Assembly: GCA_018606805.1 (NCBI GenBank)
Contig: JAGYWI010000001.1
Coordinates: forward strand, 62,001 to 126,000
From: Candidatus Magnetomicrobium cryptolimnococcus
Lineage (GTDB): Bacteria > Nitrospirota > Thermodesulfovibrionia > Thermodesulfovibrionales > Magnetobacteriaceae
Length of the DNA stretch: 64,000 nucleotides
Reading direction: 5' to 3'
Part shown: piece by piece, positions 261 through 59,544 of the stretch
Layout: every line of letters starts with the position of its first letter
How positions within the stretch are numbered: the stretch's first letter is position 1
The notes under the pieces: model-generated
The model's database searches: none
The model's input: only the letters and a program-made list of their open reading frames with translations
What the model was told of the DNA's origin: nothing
Made by a program: the position numbers and the translations under genes

Positions 261-470
261 AGAACGGGGGGAAACTTAAGCTAAGGAAAAAAGATAACGG
301 GGGAAAAACCTTTTCGAAAAAAACGGTTCTTCCCCCACACCCCTTACGGGAGTGCGCCTACGCACTTCCTAAAACTTCTGGCCTGCTACCTCTTTATTTA
401 TTCTTCTACAAGTAAACCTTTATGACCACTACACTGATACACCTTCTCTATAGATAGATAGTTTTTATAA
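261..470. repeat. Dispersed palindromic intergenic repeat, block 1
   Basis: This noncoding block between the CHASE2 gene and the Rpn-like gene has a hairpin of the GGGGGAAAA...TTCCCCC type near 299-336, then ACGGGAGTGCGCCTACGCACTTCCT and a CCTAAAACTTCTGG tail near 346-381. The same modules recur at about 9.5, 17.8, 23.9, 28.7, 40.6, 50.6, 52.6, 58.7 and 59.4 kb. The rest of the 241-541 gap shows no gene. Confidence 0.75.
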
Positions 471-9481: not shown

Positions 9482-9511
9482 TTTATACTTCTAAACTAGT
9501 ATACAAGTCAA
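9482..9511 (-). promoter_or_regulatory. Candidate sigma-70-type promoter for the corA-cmr operon
   Basis: On the minus strand TTGACT (9511-9506) and TATAAA (9487-9482) are separated by 18 bp. The predicted start is about 34 nt upstream of the corA ATG at 9441, which is preceded by GGAGAAAACAA as ribosome binding site. The -35 hexamer falls at the edge of a dispersed repeat block, so the repeat may contribute to transcription. Confidence 0.5.
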
Positions 9512-9594
9512 AAGTTTTAGGAAAGGACGTGTAGGCACGCCTTCCTGGGGTGCGGGGGAAAACCCCTTTTGCCTAAAAGGGTTTTCCCCCCCAA
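9500..9594. repeat. Dispersed palindromic intergenic repeat, block 2
   Basis: This block between rpoC and corA has a CAAAAGTTTTAGGAAAGG end (about 9510-9527) and a strong hairpin at 9554-9592 with arms GGGGGAAAACCCCTTTT and AAAAGGGTTTTCCCCC around a GCCT loop. No U-tract follows on the rpoC strand, so it is not a classical intrinsic terminator, though it could impede polymerase after rpoC. Confidence 0.8.
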
Positions 9595-9628
9595 ATCTTT
9601 ATCTGTTAATCTTTTAATCTTTTAATCT

Positions 9629-12600
9629 TTACTTTTCAAAGAGTTCTTCTGCTTCTAAAAGGCTTTTATTAACACCAAATATTGACTCATCCGAATCTCT
9701 TTTTACATAGGTATTTTTAAATTTATCCATACCCGTACCACATGGTATTATTTTCCCCATTATGACGTTTTCCTTAAGTCCTCTAAGCTCATCCACATTA
9801 CCAATAATAGCGGCATCCGTAAGCACTCTTGTGGTTTCTTGGAAACTTGCTGCCGATACCCAACTGTAGGTTGTTAGAGATGCCTTAGTTATACCCAAAA
9901 GAAGCGGCTTACCCTGAGCTGGTCGTTTTCCTTCCGTTATCAACTCTCTGTTTCTTTCTTGGAAAATAATACGGTCTACCTGTTCACCTATCATAAATTC
10001 ACTATCGCCTGAGTCCTCTATCCTAACCTTTCTCATCATCTGGCGAATGATTATCTCTATGTGCTTATCATTGATAGTAACACCCTGGAGCCTATATACC
10101 TTCTGCACTTCATCAACGAGATAGCGTTGAAGCTCAGTGGGCCCCAATATATCCAAAATACTGTGTGGATTAACCGCCCCATCCATAAGCGCCTCACCGG
10201 CTCGCACCCAATCGCCCTCGTGTACGGTAACGTGCTTACCTTTTGGAATGGAGTATTCCTTAGTAATATCCCCGCCTTTAACACGCACAACGCGTAAGCC
10301 CTTTTGCGTTGAGACAAAATCCACCACACCATCTATTTCAGACACAACGGTAGGCTCTTTCGGTTTACGTGCCTCAAAAAGCTCAGCAACCCGTGGCAAA
10401 CCACCCGTAATATCCTTCGTTTTAATAGTCTCTCTTGGTATCTTTGCTAGTATATCACCTGGGGCTACTATATCATTTTTTTCAACTAACACGTTAGCTC
10501 CAGCAGGCAGTATATAACGAGCAGGGGCCTCCGATGACAGTTTTAAAGTTGCCTTACCGTGCTCATCCTTAATAGATATTCTTGGACGCATATGGGCTGG
10601 GTAGTCTATTATAATCTTATGGGAAAGACCGGTCATTTCATCAACTTGCTCTTTAACCGTAACCCCTTCTTCAATATCTCCAAATGCTATACGTCCGCCA
10701 ATTTCCGTCAGTATTGGCGTTGAGTACGGGTCCCATTCAGCTATCTTTTGTCCCAACTGTACCTTATCGCCTTCCTTTAAAAGGAGCTTTGCGCCATATA
10801 CGATAGTATGCTTTTCCCTCTCACGGCCTGTCTCATCAACAACCGTAATAATGGCATTACGATTAAGTACAACCGGAAACCCTTCACGGTTTAACACATA
10901 GTTAAGGTCACTAAACTTAAGAACCCCCGAATGCTTTGTCGTTAAAACCGCCTGTTCGATTATCTTAGTAGCCGCCCCTCCTATGTGGAAGGTTCTCATC
11001 GTAAGCTGCGTACCCGGCTCACCGATAGACTGGGCTGCTATAATACCTACCGCCTCACCAATTTCAACCGGTTCGTTTCTTCCAAGGTCGCTTCCATAAC
11101 AGTTAGCACAAAGCCCAAATCGCGTCCGACATGTAAGCACCGAGCGTATCTTAACCCTATCCACACCCGCCTCTACTATCTTTGACACCGTTTCCGTATC
11201 AAGGGATTCGTTACGCTTTACTATGATTTCATCAGTCATCGGGTCTCGTATATCTTCGGCGTTTAGCCGTCCAAGAAGCCTTTCTTCAAGTGGTTGAATC
11301 ACCTCACCACCTTCAATAAGTGCTGTTATGATTATCCCATCGGTAGTGCCGCAGTCTATTTCGTTTACAATAACGTCTTGGGCAACATCCACAAGCCTTC
11401 TTGTAAGATAACCGGAATTAGCCGTTTTTAATGCAGTATCGGCAAGACCTTTTCTTGCCCCATGGGTTGATATAAAGTACTGAAGCGGTGAAAGTCCTTC
11501 GCGGAAATTAGCCGTTATGGGGGTTTCTATTATCTCACCGGAGGGTTTTGCCATCAAGCCTCTCATACCGGCAAGCTGTCTTATCTGAGCAGCCGAGCCT
11601 CTGGCGCCTGAGTCTGCCATCATAAAAACACTATTAAACTCCCGACTGCGCGCTATAGCCTCCGGCGTTTGCTCCGTGCTATCATCAGCACCAAGCTCAT
11701 TCATCATCTCCTCTGCTACCTTTTCCGTAACGTTTGCCCAAATATCTATAACCTTATTGTATCGCTCCCCTTGGGTTATCAAACCATCCGAATACTGTTT
11801 ATAAACCTCAATAACCTCTTGCTCAGCGTTTTTCAATATATCCGGTTTCTTCGATGGTATGTGCATATCCGATATACAAATGGAGATACCGGACTTTGTA
11901 GCATAGTCAAAGCCAAGTTTTTTTAAGGCATCCAAAAAGATAACCGTCTTTCTCTTACCAGCATGTCTATAGGCATAGTCTATAACCCGTTGGACCTCTT
12001 TTTTAGTCATTACCTTATTAAAGATATGAAAAGGCACTTCCTGCGGCACGATTTCCTTAAATATGACTCTGCCCACAGTAGTATCCAAAAAAGACCCATC
12101 TTCCTGCCGCACCTTTACCCGCGCATGTTCACCAACTACGTCATTATCATAGGCAATCCGTACTTCTTCAAATGAACCAAAGAGTTTCCCTTCACCAACT
12201 ACACCGGCACTTTCCTTTGTCAAATAATATATGCCAAGAACCATATCCTGCGTAGGCAGCACAATAGGTTTACCGCTAGCGGGTGAGAGCAGATTATTTA
12301 CAGACATCATGAGCACCCTTGCCTCCACCTGAGCCTCTATGGAAAGAGGCACGTGCACTGCCATTTGGTCACCATCAAAATCAGCATTATAGGCAGTGCA
12401 AACGAGCGGGTGCAGTTTTATAGCCTTACCTTCAATTAAAACCGGATCAAAGGCTTGAATACCAAGTCTGTGCAGAGTCGGCGCCCTGTTTAAAAGCACT
12501 GGGTGTTCCTTGATAACGTCTTCAAGGGCATCCCATACCTCTGAGCGTTCGGATTCTACAAATTTCTTCGCCTGTTTTATTGTAGTAACGTATCCATTTT

Positions 12601-13768
12601 CCTCAAGTTTATTAAAAATAAACGGCTTAAATAGCTCAAGCGCCATAAGCTTTGGCAGTCCGCACTGATGGAGCTTAAGCTCCGGTCCCACAACAATAAC
12701 CGATCTACCGGAATAATCCACGCGCTTACCAAGTAGGTTTTGCCTAAACCTACCCTGCTTACCCTTAATCATATCACTTAATGATTTAAGCGAACGCTTG
12801 GTTGAGCTTTTTGGCACCTTCGTCCCCTTTGTGTTATCAAAAAGCGAATCTACAGCCTCTTGAAGCATCCGCTTTTCATTTTTAATGATAACACTTGGTG
12901 CTTTTAAATCAATAAGCCGCTTAAGCCTATTATTTCTGTTAATTACCCTTCGATACAGGTCGTTTAAATCCGAGGTAGCAAAACGCCCACCTTGTAAAGG
13001 CACAAGCGGTCTCAAATCCGGCGGCAGCACCGGCACTACATCTAAAATCATCCAATCCGGCTTATTATTGGAAAGCTTAAACGCCTCTACTATCTTTAAG
13101 CGCTTCGTAAGCTTCTTTTTAATGCCAACCGAATTAGCCTCCTCAATACCGTTTTTCAAGTCATAACTTAACGTGTCAATGTCCACCTTACGCAAAAGCT
13201 CACGAATAGCCTCAGCCCCCATCCCGGCTTTAAACTTACTGCCATACTCTATGTTATATTTCTTAAACTCATCCTCACTTAAAACCTGCTTTTCCTTTAA
13301 AACCGTGCCAAACCCCGGGTCTATTACCACATAACTTTCAAAATACAAGACCTTTTCGAGGTTTTTCATGGTCATGTCTAATATCATACCAATCCGACTA
13401 GGCACTCCCTTTAAAAACCATATGTGAGCCACAGGCGTACACAACTCTATGTGCGCAAGACGCTCCCTACGTACCTTTGCCTGAATAACCTCAACACCGC
13501 ATTTATCACAAACAACCCCTCTGTGCTTCATCCGCTTATACTTTCCACAGATACATTCCCAGTCCTTTACAGGTCCAAAAATCTTCGCACAAAAAAGGCC
13601 ATCCTTTTCAGGTCTAAACGTCCGGTAGTTTATCGTCTCCGGCTTTTTGACCTCTCCAAAAGACCACTCACGTATCTTCTCCGGCGAGGCTAACTTAATA
13701 CGAATAGCCTCAAACTCCTTAGCAGCCTTTTGTTTTTGAAACATATTATACACAATGCTTGTAGACAA
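9629..13768 (-). CDS. rpoC: DNA-directed RNA polymerase beta' subunit
   Basis: A 1379-residue protein, normal bacterial length. The N-terminal zinc ribbon is visible ([20 protein letters not shown], about residues 58-77). The catalytic Mg-binding motif [12 protein letters not shown] lies near residue 460, the bridge-helix/trigger-loop region includes [17 protein letters not shown], and the second zinc site is [13 protein letters not shown]. It lies 12 bp downstream of rpoB on the same strand and ends the rplJL-rpoBC transcription unit. Confidence 0.98.
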
Positions 13769-13780
13769 ATTAGCTCCTCC

Positions 13781-16700
13781 CTATGCTTTTTTCTCAAGAA
13801 GCTCTACATCTAAACATAAACTCTGCAACTCTTTAATTAACACCCGAAAAGACTCCGGTACCCCCGGCTCAAGTGTGGCATCCCCTTTAACGATAGCCTC
13901 ATACATCTTAGCACGCCCAGCAACATCATCACTTTTAACCGTTAAAAACTCCTGCAACGAATACGCTGCCCCATAGGCCTCAAGCGCCCACACTTCCATT
14001 TCTCCAAGCCTCTGACCACCAAACTGCGCCTTACCACCCAACGGCTGCTGCGTTACAAGCGAATATGGGCCTATTGAGCGGGCATGCAATTTATCATCAA
14101 CCAGATGGTGCAATTTTAATATATACATACAACCAACCGTTACTGGTCTATCGAAAGGCTCACCAGTCCTACCATCATATAATATAGTCTGTCCACGTTC
14201 AGAGACACCGGATTGCGTCAATAGCTCCTTTAAGCTATCCTCCTGCACGCCTTCAAACACCGGCGTTGCCACATGTATCTTCAACATCTTAGCAGCCAGC
14301 CCCAAGTGCGTTTCAAGTATCTGCCCTACATTCATTCTCGATGGTACACCAAGTGGGTTTAACACCACCTCAACTGGCGTTCCATCTGGCAAATACGGCA
14401 TATCCTCCTCTGGCATAACCATAGCAACAACTCCCTTATTGCCATGGCGACCTGCCATCTTATCTCCCACTTGAATCTTTCTCTTCATTGCTATATATAC
14501 TTTAACAAGCTTATTGACCCCCGGTGGCAGCTCATCACCTTTTTTCAAGCGCTCTATGCGCTCATCATACTTAAACTGCAACTCTCGCAAATAGCCTTTT
14601 ACCTTACTGTGCCTTTGCTCAATTTCAAGCATCACGTTTTCATCTTCAATACGTATCTTATTGAGTCTCTTATCATTAATCAGCTCAAGCTTTTCTTTAT
14701 CCAAGACCTCGCCAGCCTTACATATAATAGCACGGGTTTCGTGGTCTCTTATTTCCTCCTCTGCCACATGTCCATTTAATAGAAAACGCAAAGAGGCATA
14801 CATCTCCCTATATATTATGCGAGTTTCCTCTTCAAGGTCCCTTTGCAGCCCGCGTACCTCTGCATCTTCCAGATACTTAGCCCTTGCATCTTTCTTAATC
14901 CCACGCCTCGTAAACACCTTAACATCCACAACCGTACCTTTAATCCCCGGCGGCACGTACAAGCAGCTTTCTTTAACCTCCTCAGCCTTTTCACCAAAAA
15001 TAGCCCGTAAGAGCTTTTCCTCCGGCGTCAACTGGGTCTCCCCCTTTGGCGTAATCTTACCAACCAGTATATCCCCGGGTTTAACCTCTGCTCCAATATA
15101 TATAATACCGCTTTCATCCAGATTAGCCAGAGCTTCTTCCCCGACATTTGGTATATCCCGGGTTATCTCCTCCGGTCCAAGCTTCGTATCCCTTGCTTCA
15201 ACTTCAAACTCCTCTATATGTATTGATGTAAACACATCGTCTTTCACTAATGCTTCACTTAAAAGTATGGCATCTTCAAAATTATAACCACACCACGGCA
15301 TAAATGCCACAAACACATTGCGCCCTAAAGATAGCTCCCCTAAATCAGTCGAAGGCCCATCGGCAATAACCTGCCCCTTTTCAACCCTCATATTGCGATT
15401 TACAATAGGCCGCTGATTAATACATGTTGCTTGATTTGAGCGTGAAAACTTCACAAGTGAGTATATATCAACACTGCCATTATCTGCCTTAACAACTATC
15501 CTATTAGCATCAACGCTTTCAACAACCCCGGAGTTTCTGGCCATAATAATAGCCCCTGAGTCCCGAGCTGCCACCATCTCCATACCCGTACCCACTATCG
15601 GTGCTTGTGTCTTTATCAAAGGCACTGCCTGCCTTTGCATATTAGACCCCATAAGCGCACGGTTAGCATCATCATTTTCAAGAAACGGTATCAACGATGC
15701 CGACACACCAACTATCTGCTTTGGAGACACATCCATGTACTGTATCTCCTCTGGCGCAAATATCTTTAAATCACCCCCAATTCTTGCCGATATGGCCTCC
15801 CCTATAAGGTATCCATCCTCATCATAAGGTGTTGTTGCCTCTGCTATGATTCCCTTTTCACCTTCTATCGCTGAAAGTATCTCAACTTCAGCTGTAACGC
15901 GTCCCTCTACTACCTTTCTATAAGGAGCTACCATAAAACCATACTCATTAACCCGCGCATAGGTTGCCAAGGACGTAATAAGCCCGATGTTAGGTCCTTC
16001 AGGGGTTTCTATAGGGCAAATACGACCGTAGTGAGTGGGGTGCACGTCTCGTACTTCAAAGCCTACCCTTTCACGGGTAAGACCCCCAGGACCTAGGGCT
16101 GAGAGCCTTCTTTTGTGCGTAATCTCTGAAAGTGGATTCGTCTGGTCCATAAACTGACTCAACTGACTTGAGCCAAAAAACTCCTTAACAGCCGCCATAA
16201 CAGGTTTAGCATTTATTATATCGTGAGGCATTATATCGGTCATGTCCGTTATCATCATCTTTTCTTTAATAGCGCGCTCCATTCTAACAAGACCTATCCT
16301 AAACTGATTTTCTAAAAGTTCTCCGACACTTCTAACACGGCGATTCCCCAAATGGTCTATGTCATCCACCTCACCAACGCCAGTTCTTAAGGAAAACAAG
16401 TACTTAATTATTTCAATAATATCTTCATCTGTTAAAACGGTTTTATTTAAGTCTATGTTAAGCCCAAGACGTTTATTTGTCTTAAGGCGTCCAACAACCG
16501 ACAAATCGTAACGCTTTTCATCAAAGAAGAGACCATCAAAAAGCATCTTTGAAGCTTCAAGCGTGGGTGGTTCACCTGGCCTTAATTTCTTATAAATTTC
16601 AAGAAGAGCCTCTTCCTTTGTCGTTATCTTATCCATTAAAAGCGTGTCCCGCAACGATGGCAGATAGCGCACATTATCTATAAATAAAAGCTCCAGATGT

Positions 16701-17701
16701 TTAATCTTTAATGCTATTATTTTTTCAAAGTTTTCAGGGGTTATTATCTCATTGCCCTCTATTATAATTTCACCAGTATCTGGGTCTACTATATCGCTTA
16801 AGCTAATCCTGCCGATAATCTCTGCCTTAGTTATCGGTATTTCAGTAATGTTAGCATTCATAAGCTTACGCAGGGCAACCTTTGTTATCTTACCGCCTTC
16901 CCTTACAATAATATCACCAGTTGCTGGGTCAGTTATTGCTAAAGATGCCTTAACACTAGCTAGCACGTTTGACACCTTACGTGTGTGTGTGTCTTCGTCT
17001 TTAATATCTATGTGTTCAACCGGATAAAATATCTTTAAAAGGTCCTCATTGGAATACCCCAGTGCCTTCAACACAATAGTAGCAGGCAGTTTTTTTCTCC
17101 GGTCTATTCTCACATAAAGAATATCCTTCGTATCAAACTCAAAATCAAGCCACGAGCCGCGCGACGGTATTACCCGAGCCGTATACAGCAGACGACCACT
17201 TGTATGAGTCTTTGTCTTATCAGTATTAAAAAACACCCCGGGTGAGCGGTGCAGCTGGCTCACAATTACCCTTTCTATCCCATTTACGATAAAAGAGCCA
17301 GTTTCATTCATTAACGGTATTTCCCCTATGTATACCTCTTCCTCTCTGGCTTCTTTTAGTTTTTTATCACCATCCTCAGTGGTATCCCACAGATTCAGCT
17401 TGACCTTTATCTTCACTGGAGATGAATAGGTCAACCCTTTATGAATACACTCCCTATCCTTGTACTTCGGCTCAAGAAGGACATACCCCAAGTACTCTAT
17501 AGATGCGGTTTCATTATAATCTACAATGGGGAATACACTTTTGAAGGCAGATTCAAGACCAACATTTTTTCTTTCTAATCTATCAACGTTTTTCTGCAAA
17601 AAGGTCTCGTACGATCTAAGCTGTATTTCCGTTAAAGGTGGTACATCCTGCACATGTGGTACTTTGCCAAGGTTCATCCTCTCTCTTAACGGTTTAACCA
17701 T
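13781..17701 (-). CDS. rpoB: DNA-directed RNA polymerase beta subunit
   Basis: A 1306-residue protein with the expected landmarks: the rifampicin-pocket region [20 protein letters not shown] followed by [39 protein letters not shown], and the C-terminal [20 protein letters not shown]. The residues usually linked to rifampicin sensitivity (S-Q-F-M-D-Q, H-K-R-R-L-S) look wild-type. The gene is separated from rplL by 548 bp containing two repeat elements, much longer than in most bacteria, so a promoter of its own may exist there; none was identified clearly. Confidence 0.98.
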
Positions 17702-17741: not shown

Positions 17742-17950
17742 CGAGTGCCATTAAGTTAAGGAAAAAGAGGCGTGGGGGAAAACCTTTTTTGACAAAAAGG
17801 GTGCAAAGGCGCACCTCCCTGTTTTTCCCCGCACCCCCTTACGGGAGTGCGCCTACGCACTTCCTAAAACTTTTGGCTTGTTATTTCTTTACTTATCATT
17901 GATACGTTTGCTATACCCTAACTCAATCTTTCTTAACTTAATGACATTGC
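17742..17950. mobile_element. MITE-like repeat with terminal inverted repeats, block 3
   Basis: A ~209-bp noncoding element in the rpoB-rplL gap. Its ends are inverted repeats: GTGCCATTAAGTTAAGGAA at the left (about 17745-17763) and TTCTTAACTTAATGACATTGC at the right (17930-17950). Inside are a GGGGGAAAACC hairpin arm, an AAAGGCGCACC module, ACGGGAGTGCGCCTACGCAC and CCTAAAACTTTTGGC. There is no coding capacity. It is the most complete copy of the dispersed family in this window and resembles a non-autonomous transposable element; target-site duplications were not clear by eye. Confidence 0.6.
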
Positions 17951-23819: not shown

Positions 23820-24006
23820 AGGGAGGTGCACTTCAATGCCATTAAGTTAAGGAATTTTTAGTTAGAGTATAGCAAACGTAGAAGTATAACTAAAGAGATA
23901 ACAGGCCAAAAGTTTTGGAGTGCGTAGGCGCACTCCCGTAAGGGGTGCGGGGTTGGGGAGTGCGCCTACGCACCTTTTGTCTAAAAGGGTTTCCCCCCGC
24001 TCCTCT
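23820..24006. repeat. Dispersed palindromic intergenic repeat, block 4
   Basis: This block lies between the FGE-like gene and the tRNA promoter. It begins with CAATGCCATTAAGTTAAGGA (23834-23853), matching the inverted terminal sequence of block 3, then runs through GAGATAACAGGCCAAAAGTTTTGG, GTGCGTAGGCGCACTCCCGT, a second GGAGTGCGCCTACGCACC and a CTAAAAGGGTTTCCCCCCGC end. The opposite terminal repeat is not found. The rest of the 23685-24023 gap holds the promoter and nothing else recognised. Confidence 0.8.
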
Positions 24007-28562: not shown

Positions 28563-28619
28563 TATAGCAGATTTTGGTACATTCAAATACAATTTTTAAA
28601 TTTAACCCAAATATGCGGT

Positions 28620-28830
28620 CTAAAAATTTTTAGAAGTGCGTAGGCGCACTCCCGTAATGGGTGCGTAGGCGCACTCCCGTAATGGGTGCGTAGGCGCACT
28701 CCCGTAATGGGTACGTAGGCGCACTCCCGTAATGGGTACGGGGGAAGAACAGGGAGGTGCGCCTTCGCACCCTTTTTGCCAAAAAAGGTTTTCCCCCCGC
28801 TCTTCTCTTTCCTTAACTTAATGCCATTGG
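28620..28830. repeat. Dispersed palindromic repeat, block 5, with a 4 x 25-bp tandem array
   Basis: Between the convergent STT3 and qmoC genes, the 25-bp unit TGCGTAGGCGCACTCCCGTA-ATGGG is repeated four times (28637-28661, 28662-28686, 28687-28711, 28712-28736); only the second base of the last unit differs. A GGGGGAAGAACAGGGAGGTG hairpin, GCGCCTTCGCAC and GGTTTTCCCCCCGC follow, ending with TTCCTTAACTTAATGCCATTGG (28809-28830), the terminal repeat seen inverted in blocks 3 and 4. A 94-residue reverse ORF over this block only translates the repeat. Confidence 0.88.
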
Positions 28831-40464: not shown

Positions 40465-40557
40465 CTCCTAAAACACAAAAAAATACCCCTTCCCCATTCA
40501 ATATAACATTATAATCCAAATCTTGTCAAAAAATTGAACTAAAATAATAAAAATATA

Positions 40558-41025
40558 GAAGAGCGGGGGAAAACCCTTTTAGGCAAAAGGTGCGTAGGCG
40601 CACCAGGGGTGCTACCCTGTACAATAGTCCACTTGGTAACTGAACATAGGTCTGCCCTTACGATATACATATTTTGTAGGGGCGAACCTATGGGCAAACC
40701 CTTATTATACAACACATAGTTAGTTGTAAAGTTTCTACGTGGCTCCAAAGTAGTGAGAGGGGGTTTTAAAGGGGGAGGTCTGTTTTCTCCCCCTTTTTGC
40801 GCCAAATCGGCGAATGGAAAGACAACCCCCGTTCTTTTTAGGGGATTGTCTTTCCATTCGCCGATTTACTCGTTATGCCTGCACAAGCTTTGGGGAAAAA
40901 AATGTCATCCTGCCACAGTGTACAACATTTAGCACTTATTGTCAGGACAAAAGTTTTAGGAAAGGGGGTGCGGGGGAAGAACCCTTTTGCCTAAAAGGGT
41001 TTTCCCCCGCTCTTCTATATTTTTT
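40558..41025. repeat. Large composite multi-hairpin repeat, copy A
   Basis: A ~470-bp noncoding region clearly related to 59030-59458 (copy B, about 18 kb away). Shared tracts in order include GGTGCGTAGGCGCACC, TAGGTCTGCCCTTACGA, GTGGCTCCAAAGTAGTGAGA, TTTTGCGCCAAATCGGCGAA, the large hairpin, TTACTCGTTATGCCTGCACA, TCATCCTGCCACAGTGTACA, ACATTTAGCACTTATTGTCA and GGGGGTGCGGGGGAA. The copies differ by many substitutions and small indels, so the duplication is not recent. ORFs inside are not conserved in frame between copies. Each end carries a GGGGGAAAACCC-type hairpin arm. Confidence 0.88.
40804..40867. repeat. Long hairpin inside copy A
   Basis: The arms AAATCGGCGAATGGAAAGAC (from 40804) and GTCTTTCCATTCGCCGATTT (to 40867) extend inward to 27 bp with one C/A mismatch at 40826/40845, which becomes a G-U wobble in a minus-strand transcript. 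The equivalent hairpin at 59246-59309 has a compensated pair: G40817-C40854 here is T-A there. Confidence 0.9.
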
Positions 41026-41035
41026 ATTTTTCTCT

Positions 41036-41749
41036 TTATTTTTTTTCTACAAAATCTATCAATTCTATAACTTTATCCACAATAATTTGTAATGCTTTGT
41101 GGCCTTTTTCAGCGGTAGCCTTTTTAGGGTTACCCCAAACCCCGCCGGGCCAGTATCGTACTTTATCTTTTACGCTAAAAGGTTTGGGCAAGGCTGGGTA
41201 TTCTTCATCGGCAAGACCGTTAACAAGTTCTGGTTTTAGCGCTAACATTAGTGATGTTTCAAGTTCGCCGGCGTGGGCGTCGTTTTTGGTTTCGCAGATT
41301 TGTGAGAGTTCTTTGCCTATGACTTCATAGGGAGATACGGCTGCTATTGATAGCTCGTCGAGTTCTTCAACAAGACGTTCGGCAACTTCCTTTAGGGCTG
41401 CCATGTGAAGACCGCCGCCGTGGCCAGACAGTAAAAGTACGTTTCTAAGTCCTTTGGCGTACACAGAGCGCACGATGTCTTCGGTTAGGAGGCGGAGGGC
41501 TTGAGGGGTTATGCTTATGGTTCCTGGGTGGTTTTTCGTTGTTGTGCAAACGCCATAGGGAATTGTTGGTGCAAGGAACACTGGGCGTTTTTTAATCACT
41601 TCCTTTAGGGCTTCATCAATAATAGCCACATCTGTATTTAATGGCAAGTGCGAGCCGTGCTCTTCTATAGCGCCATAGGGAATCAGTATGGTTTTGGTCA
41701 CATTTAAGTGTTTAATGAACTGCGGCATTGTCAGTTCTTGTAGTATCAT
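41036..41749 (-). CDS. Creatininase-family amidohydrolase
   Basis: About 237 residues from the ATG at 41749, which is preceded by AAGGAG; a longer frame reaches 41791 but lacks this site. The family motifs are IPYGAIEEHGSHLPLNTDVA (E and H metal ligands) near the N-terminus, TTKNHPGTISITPQ, VLLLSGHGG-GLHMAAL (H ligand) and AHAGELETSLMLALKPEL (E ligand). The metal-binding residues look intact. Family members include creatininase, FAPy-deformylase-like enzymes and MftE; the substrate here is unknown. It overlaps the end of the CheY-like gene upstream. Confidence 0.82.
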   Translation of the reverse strand: MILQELTMPQFIKHLNVTKTILIPYGAIEEHGSHLPLNTDVAIIDEALKEVIKKRPVFLAPTIPYGVCTTTKNHPGTISITPQALRLLTEDIVRSVYAKGLRNVLLLSGHGGGLHMAALKEVAERLVEELDELSIAAVSPYEVIGKELSQICETKNDAHAGELETSLMLALKPELVNGLADEEYPALPKPFSVKDKVRYWPGGVWGNPKKATAEKGHKALQIIVDKVIELIDFVEKK

Positions 41750-50527: not shown

Positions 50528-50569
50528 AGTAAAAGAATAGGCAAAAGAAAAAAATGCACTAAACAAAAA

Positions 50570-50690
50570 GAGGCAGGGGAGAACGCTTTTAGACAAACAG
50601 GTGCGAAGGCGCACCTCCCCTAGCCCTTCCCCCGCACACCTTACAGGAGTGCGCCTCCGCCTTCCTAAAACTTTTGACCGTTATCTCCCA
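50570..50690. repeat. Dispersed palindromic intergenic repeat, block 6
   Basis: The block contains GGCAGGGGAGAACGCTTTTA, AGGTGCGAAGGCGCACCTCC (stem-loop), CACACCTTACAGGAGTGCGC and CTTCCTAAAACTTTTGACCG. Its right end overlaps the 3' end of the convergent 158-residue gene and supplies that gene's last seven codons and stop. Confidence 0.8.
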
Positions 50691-52606: not shown

Positions 52607-52690
52607 GTTAAAGTATAGTAAATGTACAAAGATAATATAGAGAGATAACAAGTCAAAAATTTTAGGAAAAGTGTTTTCCCCCGCTCTTTT
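52607..52690. repeat. Dispersed repeat fragment, block 7
   Basis: A partial copy lies upstream of the ATPase gene. AAAGTATAGTAAATGTACAA and GAGATAACAAGTCAAAAATT-TTAGGAAAAG match the AGAGTATAGCAAACGTAGAA and GAGATAACAGGCCAAAAGTT tracts of block 4, and TTTTCCCCCGCTCTTTT is the right hairpin arm. The central GTGCG module is missing. Confidence 0.7.
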
Positions 52691-52701
52691 TTTCAGGATT
52701 T

Positions 52702-55700
52702 TTATCTTTTATTTTTTTCTAATAATTGGATAATTTCATCAAGTGGCACTGGTTTACTAAACAAAAATCCTTGTGCCTTCATGCAATTCATTGAGCGAAG
52801 CAAGTCAAGCTGGGCAGTTGTTTCCACACCTTCGGCTATAATGTCTATATCAAGATTTTTAGCCATTGCTATGATTGTATTTACAATTGCCATATCATCT
52901 CTGTCTTCTGGTAGGTCTTTTACGAAAGACCTGTCTATTTTCAGTTTATCTATAGGGAGGTGTTTTAGATAGGTCAAAGAAGAATAGCCAGTACCAAAAT
53001 CATCAACTGAGATACAAATGCCCATGTTTTTTAGTTGGTGCATGGTTTCAATAACTATTTCTTGGTTTTTCATAAATATGCTTTCAGTAATTTCAAGTTC
53101 AAGAAACCTTGCATTAAAACCAGTTTGCTTTAGTATAGTGCGAATGGTTTCAACGATTGATAAATTAAACTGATGCATGGATATATTAACAGCCACCTGT
53201 AGGTTTGTAAAGCCACGCCTATTTAGCTCAAGGGTGTCAAGGCAAGCCCGTTTAAGCACCCATTGGCTTATGGTGTTGATAAAACCTGATTCCTCAGCTA
53301 TAGGTATAAACTTTGCTGGCATAACCATCTCTTTTACCGGGTGCTTCCATCTAAGTAGTGCTTCCATTCCACAGTAAGAATTATTTAGCAAGTTGATTTG
53401 CGGCTGGTAATAAATTATAAACTCATCCTCTATAACAGCATTTCTCATATCCTTTAATAACTCCATCCGCTCAAGGGCTATTTCGTTCATTGAATAAGTA
53501 AAGAACTTGTAGTTATTTCTACCACTTGCCTTTGCCTCATACATGGCAATTTCCGCATTTTTAACTAACTCTGTCACATCTTTACCATCCGATGGATACA
53601 TACAGATGCCCATACTTACTGTTACATAAAGCTCATGGCTATCTATAATAAAGACATCGCTTACCCTTTTAAATATCCTATCCGACACGGTTATAATGTC
53701 ATTAATACTGTTTACGTTGGTAACTAGAAGTACAAATTCATCACCACTTATGCGGGCTACTGTGTCCTCTTCACGAATGCACTCTTTTAGTCTGATGGAT
53801 ACCTGACTTAAGACGTTATCGCCAACATTATGTCCAACCGTATCGTTTATGTCTTTGAAATTATCCACATCTATTAGTATGATAGCTAAACTGATGTTTT
53901 GGCGCTGGGCGTGTGAAAGCGCTATTGATAGTCGGTCGTATAGTAGCACGCGGTTTGGTAGACCTGTAAGTGAATCGTGCAAGGACATGTATCGTAAACG
54001 TTTTTCAGCCTCTCGTTTTTCTGTAATATCCTTAACCGTCGTTAATAGTTTTTCTACTTGGCCTTCTATGTTAAATACTGGGCTTATCGTATATTCATAA
54101 TACTTAATAATCCCCTCGCCAGCCAAAAACTCTGTTTCTTCCGTAATAGGCAAACCGTTTTTAAAAACAATCTCCCTTTGAATGTCAAAACGCCGCATAG
54201 CCTTTTTGTACAGGTCTAGCTCTTGCCAAGTTTTGCCAATAATGTCTCCTACTTCTCGTCCTATAGCCTTTGCATACACATTATTTACGTAGATAAACTT
54301 CCCTTGTTTATCAAGCATAAATATCTGATCCGGCGTATTTGATAGCACATCATCAAGCAGTGCATTTTGCTGTTCTATCTTTAATAAAAGCGTTTCTTTT
54401 TCCTTTTCTACTGCCTTCCAATGGGTTATATTTTCCGTCATCTCTATAAAATATAATGCCCTATCCGTTTCATCCTGAATAGTAGATACGGTCAATCGTC
54501 CCCAAAACTCCTCACCGTTTTTCGTTATATAGCGTTTATCTATCTGATAGTATGGAATTTGTCCTGCTTTTAGTAATTCCGAAAGCTCCACATATTGCCT
54601 GATATCCTGTTCATTAGTTATATCCAATTTATTACAAGCTTGCAGGCCGCTTTCTGTGTACCCAAGCATCTGACACAGCATGTTATTAGCACTAAGTATA
54701 TTAAAATCCAGATCAACTATGGCCATTCCGATAGAGCTTTCTTTAAAAATTTTACTAAAGCGATGTTCACTACTTTGGAGGTTTTTTTCAAATCGTATGC
54801 GGTCGGCTATCTCTTCTTCCAATTCTTTGTTAATCTTTACAAGCGCCTCTGTGCGTCTTTTAACCATTTGTTCTAAATTTTGTCGGTAATCCTGAAGGGC
54901 TTCTTCATTTTTGGCTGCCAATATTACTATTGAATAAAAAGAAGCCAACCGTTTCATATCTTCAATATCTTTTCTACTATAAGGTTTAGCAGGATTTGCT
55001 AGTAATATCCATCCAACAAGACACTCATCGCCATAGGCTGGGTATACCAGTATAGATTTAATGTCTATAAATGCCTCATTTAAGAGCACTACTTCATCTG
55101 GGGCATTAATATAAAAACCACCCCCTTTTTTCATACAACTGCAACTGACTTGATTCATTGAAAGTACTGGTAAAAGTGTCTCTTCAAGCATACGTAAGCG
55201 ATGCCTAAATACTTGCGTGTATGAAAGCGTTTTAATTTGACCTCTTTGTGTGTCAGTTTCACACACGTACCCGTCTCTACTTTTGGTTATTTGCAGGGCG
55301 TGTTTTAAAACCTTTTCACCTATGCTTTCAATGGATATGGTATTGGAGATGATCGTTTCTGCTAGCTCAAGGAGCGCTGTATGAATCATTAATTCACGGT
55401 TTTTGGATGTATCTATTACACTTATAATTAAACCTCTTTGTGTTTGGCTATCATCTAAAAGCGGCGCTATCGTGGCTGCTGCATACAAGATGGAGCCGTC
55501 TTGGCATAATAAGTGAAAATCGTTTTCTTGTTTTAGACCATTTTTAAAATCAGGGAGTTGCGCCCCCGTACCAGGAAAGTGCGCCCCCGTACCAGGAAAG
55601 TGCGCCCCCGCACCAGGGAGGTGCGCCCCCGCACCTTTGAAGTGTTGCATACAACATAGAGCAGTATTTTGGTCTATAAATGAAAAAACCTTCCTCCCAA

Positions 55701-55854
55701 GCATAAAACCGACACTGTATCCAATCATGTCAGCCATTTTAGGGTTTGCGTATATTAGCCTGTAGTTATTGTCTACTACCCATACGCCTGTATAAGAACA
55801 CTCTACGAACTGGCGACAGTTCCTTTCACTAAAAATCAAAATATTTAAATCCAT
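52702..55854 (-). CDS. Multi-PAS/GAF GGDEF-EAL c-di-GMP signalling protein
   Basis: A 1050-residue cytoplasmic protein. PAS1 spans about residues 8-125 and is interrupted by a 4 x 7-residue tandem (74-101); a GAF-like domain covers ~170-310; a coiled coil ~315-355; PAS2 ~360-480; PAS3 ~505-625; GGDEF ~640-800; EAL ~810-1045. The GGDEF motif is ARISGDEFVLLV (SGDEF, a variant compatible with activity in some proteins). The EAL domain is complete: GMEALLRWKHP, LEITESIFMKN, SVDDFGTGYSSL, IDKLKIDRSFV and IIAEGVET, so phosphodiesterase activity is likely. No membrane segments are seen. Confidence 0.93.
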   Translation of the reverse strand: MDLNILIFSERNCRQFVECSYTGVWVVDNNYRLIYANPKMADMIGYSVGFMLGRKVFSFIDQNTALCCMQHFKGAGAHLPGAGAHFPGTGAHFPGTGAQLPDFKNGLKQENDFHLLCQDGSILYAAATIAPLLDDSQTQRGLIISVIDTSKNRELMIHTALLELAETIISNTISIESIGEKVLKHALQITKSRDGYVCETDTQRGQIKTLSYTQVFRHRLRMLEETLLPVLSMNQVSCSCMKKGGGFYINAPDEVVLLNEAFIDIKSILVYPAYGDECLVGWILLANPAKPYSRKDIEDMKRLASFYSIVILAAKNEEALQDYRQNLEQMVKRRTEALVKINKELEEEIADRIRFEKNLQSSEHRFSKIFKESSIGMAIVDLDFNILSANNMLCQMLGYTESGLQACNKLDITNEQDIRQYVELSELLKAGQIPYYQIDKRYITKNGEEFWGRLTVSTIQDETDRALYFIEMTENITHWKAVEKEKETLLLKIEQQNALLDDVLSNTPDQIFMLDKQGKFIYVNNVYAKAIGREVGDIIGKTWQELDLYKKAMRRFDIQREIVFKNGLPITEETEFLAGEGIIKYYEYTISPVFNIEGQVEKLLTTVKDITEKREAEKRLRYMSLHDSLTGLPNRVLLYDRLSIALSHAQRQNISLAIILIDVDNFKDINDTVGHNVGDNVLSQVSIRLKECIREEDTVARISGDEFVLLVTNVNSINDIITVSDRIFKRVSDVFIIDSHELYVTVSMGICMYPSDGKDVTELVKNAEIAMYEAKASGRNNYKFFTYSMNEIALERMELLKDMRNAVIEDEFIIYYQPQINLLNNSYCGMEALLRWKHPVKEMVMPAKFIPIAEESGFINTISQWVLKRACLDTLELNRRGFTNLQVAVNISMHQFNLSIVETIRTILKQTGFNARFLELEITESIFMKNQEIVIETMHQLKNMGICISVDDFGTGYSSLTYLKHLPIDKLKIDRSFVKDLPEDRDDMAIVNTIIAMAKNLDIDIIAEGVETTAQLDLLRSMNCMKAQGFLFSKPVPLDEIIQLLEKNKR
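55552..55635 (-). repeat. In-frame 4 x 21-bp tandem repeat inside the PAS1 domain
   Basis: Four tandem 21-bp units encode GAGAHLP, GAGAHFP, GTGAHFP and GTGAQLP (residues 74-101). The DNA unit (GGTGCGGGGGCGCACCTCCC-like) resembles the GTGCG...CGCAC and GTGCGGGGG modules of the intergenic repeats. It lies in a predicted loop of PAS1, and the reading frame continues on both sides. Confidence 0.85.
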
Positions 55855-58609: not shown

Positions 58610-58714
58610 CTGTTGTATACCACCTTTTTAATAAATATATAAAATATCTTTACGAATTATCAACATAATGATATAATTTTGTCAATCATTTTATTACTTA
58701 TTACTGTTATAAAA

Positions 58715-58843
58715 GGATAGAAGAACAGGGGGAAACCCTTTTAGATAAAAGGGTTGTCCCCCCGCACCCCTTTCCTAAAACTTTTAGCCTGCAACCCATT
58801 TAGTTCCTCTATACTTCTGCTACATTAACTTAATGATATTGAA
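58715..58843. repeat. Dispersed palindromic intergenic repeat, block 8
   Basis: A hairpin with arms GGGGGAAACCCTTTTA and TAAAAGGGTTGTCCCCCC (58729-58763) is followed by GCACCCCTTTCCTAAAACTT-TTAGCCTGC and ends with ATTAACTTAATGATATTGAA (58824-58843), the terminal sequence of blocks 3-5. The left end lacks the terminal repeat. Confidence 0.78.
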
Positions 58844-58874
58844 CTATGTTTACATTTGTACTTACATAACAACT

Positions 58875-59458
58875 AAAGCGTCTATTGGGGAAAGCACACT
58901 GACCTCAAAGAAAGCCGAAAAGATGGCTTTCTTTTACGGCAGCGCCATTTCCCCATAGACGCTTTGGTGTAATCAGGGGGAGCATGAAGCCTCCCCCTGA
59001 GAAAAACCCCCTCTGAGTCTTTTTTCTACTGGTGCGCAAGCGCACCAGATGTGCTACCACTGTGCAACACCATATCCACTCAGTAGCTGAACACAGGGCA
59101 GACACACAGGTCTGCCCCTACGAATTTTTGCTAGGGGCAAGCCCTTTGTTACACATAACTTTTATCATGTGGAGTCTCTGTGTGGCTCCAAAGTAGTGAG
59201 AGGGGGATTTAAAGGGGGAGATATTTTTCTCCCCTTTTTTGCGCCAAATCGGCGAATGTAAAGACAACCCCCGTTCCTTTTGGGGGGTTGTCTTTACATT
59301 CGCCGATTTACTCGTTATGCCTGCACAAGCTTTGGGAAAAAAAGTGTCATCCTGCCACAGTGTACAACATTTAGCACTTATTGTCAGGCTAAAAGTTTTA
59401 GGAAAGGGGGTGCGGGGGGAAACCCTTTTGCCTAAAAGGGTTTCCCCCCGCTCTTCTA
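58875..59458. repeat. Large composite multi-hairpin repeat, copy B
   Basis: A ~580-bp noncoding region with four strong hairpins. The first (58875-58965) pairs AAAGCGTCTATTGGGGAAA with TTTCCCCATAGACGCTTT and has an inner AAAGAAAGCC/GGCTTTCTTT stem. The second (58973-59000) pairs TCAGGGGGAG with CTCCCCCTGA. The third (59246-59309) is a perfect 27-bp-arm hairpin also found in copy A. The fourth (about 59413-59448) pairs GGGGGGAAACCCTTTT with AAAAGGGTTTCCCCCC. From 59030 onward it is related to copy A at 40558-41025; the first two hairpins are unique to this copy. Nothing coding is supported in 58610-59544. Confidence 0.88.
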
Positions 59459-59544
59459 TCCTTTTTCTTCTATCTTCTATCTTCTATCTTTTTTCTTTTA
59501 TATCAATTACCTGTGATTGAGTCCTCTTCTATTAATATAGATTG

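What the first reader, a model, noticed from the sequence alone, without database searches (positions are those of the whole stretch)
17742..17950. Dispersed MITE-like family with ~20-bp inverted ends, about ten copies or fragments in 64 kb
Seen: block 3 has both inverted ends (CCATTAAGTTAAGG / CTTAACTTAATG). Single ends occur at 23834-23853, 28809-28830 and 58824-58843. Shared internal modules (GTGCGTAGGCGCAC, GGGGGAAAACCC hairpins, CCTAAAACTTTTGG) recur at 0.3, 9.5, 23.9, 28.7, 40.6, 50.6, 52.6, 58.7 and 59.4 kb. Nearly all are intergenic and 3' of genes. No transposase is in the window. This density is unusual and could be a lineage-specific non-autonomous element or a REP-like family with a role in RNA ends.
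Basis: partly seen in the sequence, partly recalled or inferred. Interest (0 to 1): 0.62.

Follow-up and report, generated by a model that had tools for sequence, protein, structure and literature searches.

The report
IS4-type miniature transposon family with hairpins
Short DNA repeats scattered between this bacterium's genes are mostly decayed miniature transposons whose ends match a widespread transposase group (IS4) and the same kind of element described in the giant bacterium Thiomargarita; they are real but belong to a known kind.

Summary
The repeat family is real, at the stated coordinates and far above chance. [quoted passage not shown] The end is 19 bp, CAATGCCATTAAGTTAAGG. About 101 such ends (two or fewer mismatches) and 166 hairpin-arm copies lie in the 3.6-Mb genome; 39 relatives have no match to the whole block. 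The ends fit the published IS4-subgroup rule (-AATR--------WTW----, 10-13 bp target duplication). Some copies keep 10-11 bp duplications, and one has an empty-site paralogue; the flagged block itself has lost its duplication. The same ends border MITEs in Thiotrichaceae, Gracilibacteria, Desulfobacterota and others (32 of 75 pairs with perfect 10-12 bp duplications), including a MITE inside hupL of Thiomargarita nelsonii that fits a published one whose parent IS was unknown. IS4-family transposases sit inside near-identical ends in T. nelsonii (frameshifted) and a Gracilibacteria genome. The host keeps only a decayed remnant, on a contig that may be foreign. The internal GTGCG..CGCAC modules are a second, REP-like hairpin family (about 361 units) nested in the MITE arms. 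A transcription-end role is not supported: the T-tract shows no orientation bias. Verdict: new member of a known kind.

The parts
17743..17949 (+). Only copy in the window with both inverted ends (207 bp), just upstream of the minus-strand gene 13781-17701; element boundaries
   Evidence: both ends, 2 mismatches each; pair; flanking 11-mers match at only 5/11, so no target duplication survives; folds as one long hairpin, z -3.7 DNA and -4.8 RNA
17743..17761 (+). left terminal inverted repeat (GAGTGCCATTAAGTTAAGG)
17931..17949 (-). right terminal inverted repeat (CAATGTCATTAAGTTAAGA)
17847..17860 (+). REP-like hairpin unit GTGCGCCTACGCAC inside the element
23834..24006 (+). copy with left end (23834-23852, exact) and hairpin arm 23983-24006; right terminal repeat lost
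   Evidence: 81% to block 3
28613..28829 (-). copy with one terminal repeat (28811-28829), hairpin arm 28783-28806 and four tandem 25-bp hairpin units
   Evidence: outer left limit approximate
28636..28737 (+). tandem array, 4.1 copies of GTGCGTAGGCGCACTCCCGTAATGG
58719..58841 (-). copy with one terminal repeat (58823-58841, 3 mismatches) and hairpin arm 58719-58742
281..404 (+). decayed copy without recognisable terminal repeats
   Evidence: families D4, D8, D10; 86% over 76 nt to block 3
9504..9606 (+). decayed copy (hairpin core) just downstream of the minus-strand gene 9629-13768
40528..41045 (.). long fold-back element: inverted arms 40528-40590 / 40983-41045 (87% complementary) made of the same hairpin arm, with other hairpins in the loop
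   Evidence: (I4, D2)
50557..50690 (+). decayed copy without terminal repeats
   Evidence: D4, D8
52649..52718 (+). fragment (CCTAAAA module plus right hairpin arm)
58711..59465 (.). second long fold-back arrangement: inverted arms 58711-58791 / 59385-59465 (88% complementary)
   Evidence: I2
55551..55638 (-). array of four 21-bp hairpin units in frame inside the PAS-GGDEF-EAL gene 52702-55854 (adds 4 x 7 residues, GAGAHLP type)
   Evidence: (D9)

Best explanation
This is an old, largely decayed population of MITEs of the IS4 group. The ends CAATGCCATTAAGTTAAGG/CCTTAACTTAATGGCATTG are the binding and cutting sites of an IS4-family DDE transposase supplied in trans. It cuts the element out and pastes it into preferred 11-bp semi-palindromic targets (such as GGRC-N3-GYCC), often the hairpins of other repeats, leaving a 10-12 bp duplication. 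Shown: ends, copy number, duplications at some copies, one paralogous empty site, palindromic target preference, identical ends on MITEs in other phyla, and IS4 transposases lying inside near-identical ends elsewhere. Inferred: that such a transposase moved these copies. The host now holds only a truncated IS4 remnant (on a low-GC contig that may not belong to it), so the swarm is probably immobile. The arms form a strong fold-back hairpin into which a second family of REP-like GTGCG-N4-CGCAC units has been inserted and tandemly amplified. No host function is needed to explain the pattern.
For: Ends against the IS4-subgroup rule '-AATR--------WTW----, DR 10-13 bp' (PMC2266710 Table 1): every listed position fits. 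Own genome: 13 end pairs; 11-bp flank match mean 5.6 vs 2.8 in re-paired flanks (largest of 1000 shuffles 4.6); L039 11/11, L098 10/11, L073 10-bp duplication. Empty site of L098 found at L060:18960-19013 (96% over 54 bp across the junction). Palindromic target: 23 of 80 flanks with 3 or more of 4 pairs vs about 5 of 80 at shifted positions. Other phyla: 75 pairs, perfect duplications of 10/11/12 bp in 6/17/9. L267: MITE with exact end inside a NiFe hydrogenase large-subunit match of T. nelsonii, TSD ACTGTTTGGAT. L277: same end (1 mismatch), then a frameshifted IS4 transposase (NF033592, E 1.6e-26). L251: 500-aa open frame, IS4 transposase (NF033592, 147 bits over cut-off 115) between CAATACCATTAACTTAAGG ends. 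L234/L235: IS4 elements with CAATGCTGTTGACTTAAG ends and visible 11-bp duplications. Own remnant L273: end CAATGTCATTAACTTAAGC plus IS4 N-part. Arm covariation p = 2e-4.
Against: Block 3 itself has no surviving duplication. Only 13 pairs under 450 bp were found among the 80 ends in hand. No intact transposase with exactly these ends was found in the host or elsewhere: the best are an intact frame with 2 mismatches in the ends (Gracilibacteria) and a frameshifted one with 1 mismatch (T. nelsonii). The remnant in the host is on a 26.6%-GC contig that may be foreign. Many hairpin cores occur without any terminal repeat, so part of the spread may be due to something other than this transposase.
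Confidence: 0.86

Rival explanations
1. The family is in essence a REP/BIME family: the GTGCG-N4-CGCAC hairpins are the mobile unit, spread by a RAYT-type tyrosine transposase, and the outer ends are incidental.
For: 361 units GTGYG-N4-CRCAC-TCCC in the genome, in both orientations and in 21/23-25 bp tandems, with compensatory stem changes (127 of 144 paired at the variable position); also present outside the MITEs and inside a gene. One RAYT-like gene exists (L266; NF047646, 57 bits, below cut-off 80).
Against: No GTAG or CGTC tag was seen on these units (tags as in PMC3733652). The RAYT gene carries a different, GTAG-headed repeat. Outer ends are conserved far more than a passenger needs, and show target duplications.
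Confidence: 0.1
2. The repeats are retained as RNA elements, such as bidirectional terminators or transcript stabilisers at gene ends.
For: Strong RNA hairpin (z -4.8), T-rich tract after the arm, intergenic placement, modest excess between convergent genes (16 of 62 vs 15.6% expected), arm covariation.
Against: T-tract points with the neighbouring genes in 21 and against in 16 tandem cases. Avoidance of coding and promoter regions alone explains the placement. Copies are decayed and lineage-restricted.
Confidence: 0.03
3. Chance or assembly artefact.
For: The genome is a fragmented assembly (91 contigs).
Against: Controls of 0 to 1 against 101, 166 and 361 matches; copies lie in the middle of long contigs with different flanks.
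Confidence: 0.01

Closest known systems
hupL MITE family of Candidatus Thiomargarita nelsonii (Flood et al. 2016, PMC4853749)
   Same: The element found inside a T. nelsonii NiFe hydrogenase large-subunit match (L267) has exactly this 19-bp end at one side and 1 mismatch at the other, and a perfect 11-bp duplication. The paper reports a 19-bp IR and 10-bp DR sharing one base.
   Different: Bodies are unrelated. The paper found no parent IS and suggested a PD-(D/E)XK element; the IS4 transposases found here next to these ends point to IS4. That L267 is the paper's own copy is inferred from gene, host, IR length and duplication, not from its supplement.
IS4 family, subgroup IS4 (PMC2266710)
   Same: End consensus, duplication length, cut-and-paste DDE transposase with YREK motif in the autonomous relatives.
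   Different: The window elements carry no transposase; the host has only a remnant.
BrickBuilt MITE of Porphyromonas gingivalis (PMC4596501)
   Same: MITE carrying a 23-bp tandem minisatellite, intergenic, species-limited.
   Different: Different repeat unit; here the unit is a hairpin and also occurs outside the MITE. Ends were not compared.
REP / BIME elements (PMC3733652, PMC2817692)
   Same: Short palindromic units in high copy, both orientations, sometimes inside genes.
   Different: No GTAG/CGTC tag and no cognate RAYT shown for the GTGCG units.

Membership tests
MITE | short, no transposase gene, terminal inverted repeats | tested here: met
   93-267 bp pairs with 19-bp inverted ends; no PF01609/PF01797 match in the window
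MITE | target-site duplication | tested here: met
   Family level; not at block 3 itself (5/11)
MITE | empty site | tested here: met
   one paralogous empty site, L060:18960-19013; no orthologous one tested
IS4 family, IS4 subgroup (mobilising system) | ends -AATR--------WTW---- | tested here: met
   CAATGCCATTAAGTTAAGG fits every listed position
IS4 family, IS4 subgroup (mobilising system) | 10-13 bp duplication | tested here: met
   10-12 bp in 32 of 75 foreign pairs; 10-11 bp in own L039, L073, L098
IS4 family, IS4 subgroup (mobilising system) | transposase with YREK motif inside matching ends | tested here: inconclusive
   Found in other genomes with 1-2 end mismatches (L251, L277); in the host only a remnant with 3 mismatches (L273)
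REP (GTAG/CGTC) for the internal hairpins | tetranucleotide tag GTAG or CGTC at one end | tested here: not met
   units read GGGA-GTGCG-N4-CGCAC; tags defined
REP (GTAG/CGTC) for the internal hairpins | cognate RAYT gene flanked by the units | tested here: not met
   one RAYT-like gene, carrying a different repeat; a RAYT missing from the assembly is possible

The most novel reading that the evidence does not exclude
The GTGCG-N4-CGCAC units are a new class of independently mobile hairpin, without GTAG/CGTC tag or RAYT, that colonises MITE arms and even protein-coding frames, so that the MITEs serve as its carriers.
Probability: 0.2. Interest if true: 0.6.

Novelty: new member of a known kind. 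Interest (0 to 1): 0.4.

Why it matters
It links a published MITE family without a known parent (hupL MITE of Thiomargarita) to IS4-type transposases, and shows that MITEs with the same 19-bp ends but different bodies live in many bacterial phyla, so the ends rather than the bodies should be used to trace them. It also gives a clear case of REP-like hairpins nested in MITEs and extending a signalling protein in frame.

Tried and rejected
The five PF01609 hits in the host as parents: none has these ends. Nterm_IS4 (PF13006) as a marker of the parents: no match over cut-off in 17 genomes. ORFs just inside the ends in the 117 foreign stretches as transposases: they did not cluster, and those listed looked like ordinary neighbouring genes. 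IS630 as parent because one end (L079:5359) abuts a stretch that reads like an IS630-type transposase tail: set aside, since the duplications are 10-12 bp rather than TA. Viral vectors: no exact end or hairpin unit in viral contigs. Rfam: only tRNAs in the window. End sequence in the open literature: no hit.

Full report
Observation. The refined end is 19 bp, CAATGCCATTAAGTTAAGG. Block 3 is 17743-17949. In the window there are 5 ends against 0.05 expected, 7 hairpin arms against 0, and 14 hairpin units against 0.03. In the whole genome (3,585,487 bases, 91 contigs) there are 101 ends (2 or fewer mismatches; control 1), 166 hairpin arms (control 0) and 361 hairpin units (control 0).

Anatomy. 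In complete copies (for example L078:15292-15384, 93 bp) the end is followed by an A-rich stretch and the arm GCGGGGGAAAACCC-TTTT, a short loop, and the complementary arm, so the minimal element is a nearly perfect fold-back. Longer bodies add an AT-rich segment (..GAGTATAGCAAACGTAGAAGGATAACTAAAGAGATAACAAGCC..), the CCAAAAGTTTTAGGAA module and one or more hairpin units. Block 3 folds far better than shuffles as DNA and as RNA. Arms covary: A:T and G:C at one pair occur 11 and 5 times with no mixed case (p = 2e-4), and the outer pair is matched in 13 and unmatched in 3 (p = 0.036) (16 distinct cores).

How it moves. Among 13 own pairs (12 scorable) the 11-bp flanks match much better than re-paired flanks (5.6 against 2.8; largest of 1000 shuffles 4.6). 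L039 is perfect (GGTTAAAGGGG), L098 is 10/11, L073 has a 10-bp duplication. Joining the L098 flanks with a single 11-mer finds an unoccupied paralogue at L060:18960-19013. The 11-bp target is itself a semi-palindrome: 23 of 80 flanks have 3 or more of 4 pairs against about 5 at shifted positions. Block 3 has no surviving duplication. Most ends are unpaired, so the swarm is probably old.

Which transposase. Ends and duplication length fit the IS4 subgroup of the IS4 family as tabulated in PMC2266710. The same exact 18-mer occurs in at least 117 stretches of other genomes: mostly Thiotrichaceae, but also Gracilibacteria, Desulfobacterota, Campylobacterota and Bacteroidota. There they border MITEs of about 50-350 bp, 32 of 75 pairs with perfect 10-12 bp duplications. 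One lies in a NiFe hydrogenase large-subunit match of Thiomargarita nelsonii (L267), fitting the 'hupL MITE' of Flood et al. 2016, whose parent was unknown. In the same genome a contig carries the end (1 mismatch) followed by a frameshifted IS4 transposase (L277). In a Gracilibacteria genome a 500-codon frame scoring as IS4 transposase lies between CAATACCATTAACTTAAGG ends (L251). In Methylomicrobium, IS4 elements with CAATGCTGTTGACTTAAG ends show 11-bp duplications (L234, L235). The host has only an N-terminal IS4 piece next to CAATGTCATTAACTTAAGC, on a 4.4-kb, 26.6%-GC contig (L273).

Distribution. The 209-bp block matches nothing in 39 relatives. The end (1 or fewer mismatches) occurs in 3 of 176 genomes of the order including the host; G006 of the same family has MITEs with a variant end and a 10-bp duplication (L222). 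The hairpin arm is absent from the six other same-family genomes sampled. No same-genus genome was seen among those searched, and the host could not be named.

Second family. GTGCG-N4-CGCAC units (144 in 862 kb against 1 for a scrambled control, 127 paired at the variable stem position) occur in both orientations and in tandems of 21 and 23-25 bp, in MITE arms and elsewhere. Four sit in frame near the first PAS region of a PAS-GGDEF-EAL protein. They lack REP tags and a shown RAYT.

Function. In 862 kb with ORF-based gene calls, 65 of 77 hairpin cores lie outside ORF calls, against 12% expected, and several of the 12 others fall in short ORFs that the repeats themselves may create. There is a modest convergent excess and no directional bias of the T-tract, so a terminator role is not supported. 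The gene calls are longest-ORF calls, not a trained gene finder.

Noticed in passing
window 55551-55638 (gene 52702-55854, -): Four tandem 21-bp hairpin units in frame add 28 residues (GAGAHLP/GTGAHFP repeats) near the first PAS region of a PAS-GGDEF-EAL protein.
   Followed up: partly
L266 1468-2082 (own genome C68, about 134345): A RAYT-like gene (REP-associated tyrosine transposase, NF047646 below cut-off) contains an inverted pair of GTAG-headed repeats (GTAGGGGCGAACC.. / ..GGTCTGCCCCTAC) in frame inside its own coding sequence; the same pair recurs just beside the gene.
   Followed up: partly
window 40760-41007 and 59202-59449: A further 248-nt repeat (87% identical) with a TCGGCGAATG..CATTCGCCGA hairpin, joined to the same hairpin core; boundaries not worked out.
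   Followed up: no
L069, L070, L085, L091 after the right hairpin arm: Many copies have a long (CTTTTTTT)n tract where the right terminal repeat should be; unclear whether slippage or another insertion process.
   Followed up: no
L273 (own genome C84, 4388 bp): Small low-GC contig with a truncated IS4 transposase and a 529-aa ORF without an NCBIfam or Pfam match; may be a plasmid or foreign contig.
   Followed up: partly
L079:5359: One MITE end directly abuts a stretch that reads like the C-terminal part of an IS630-type transposase.
   Followed up: no
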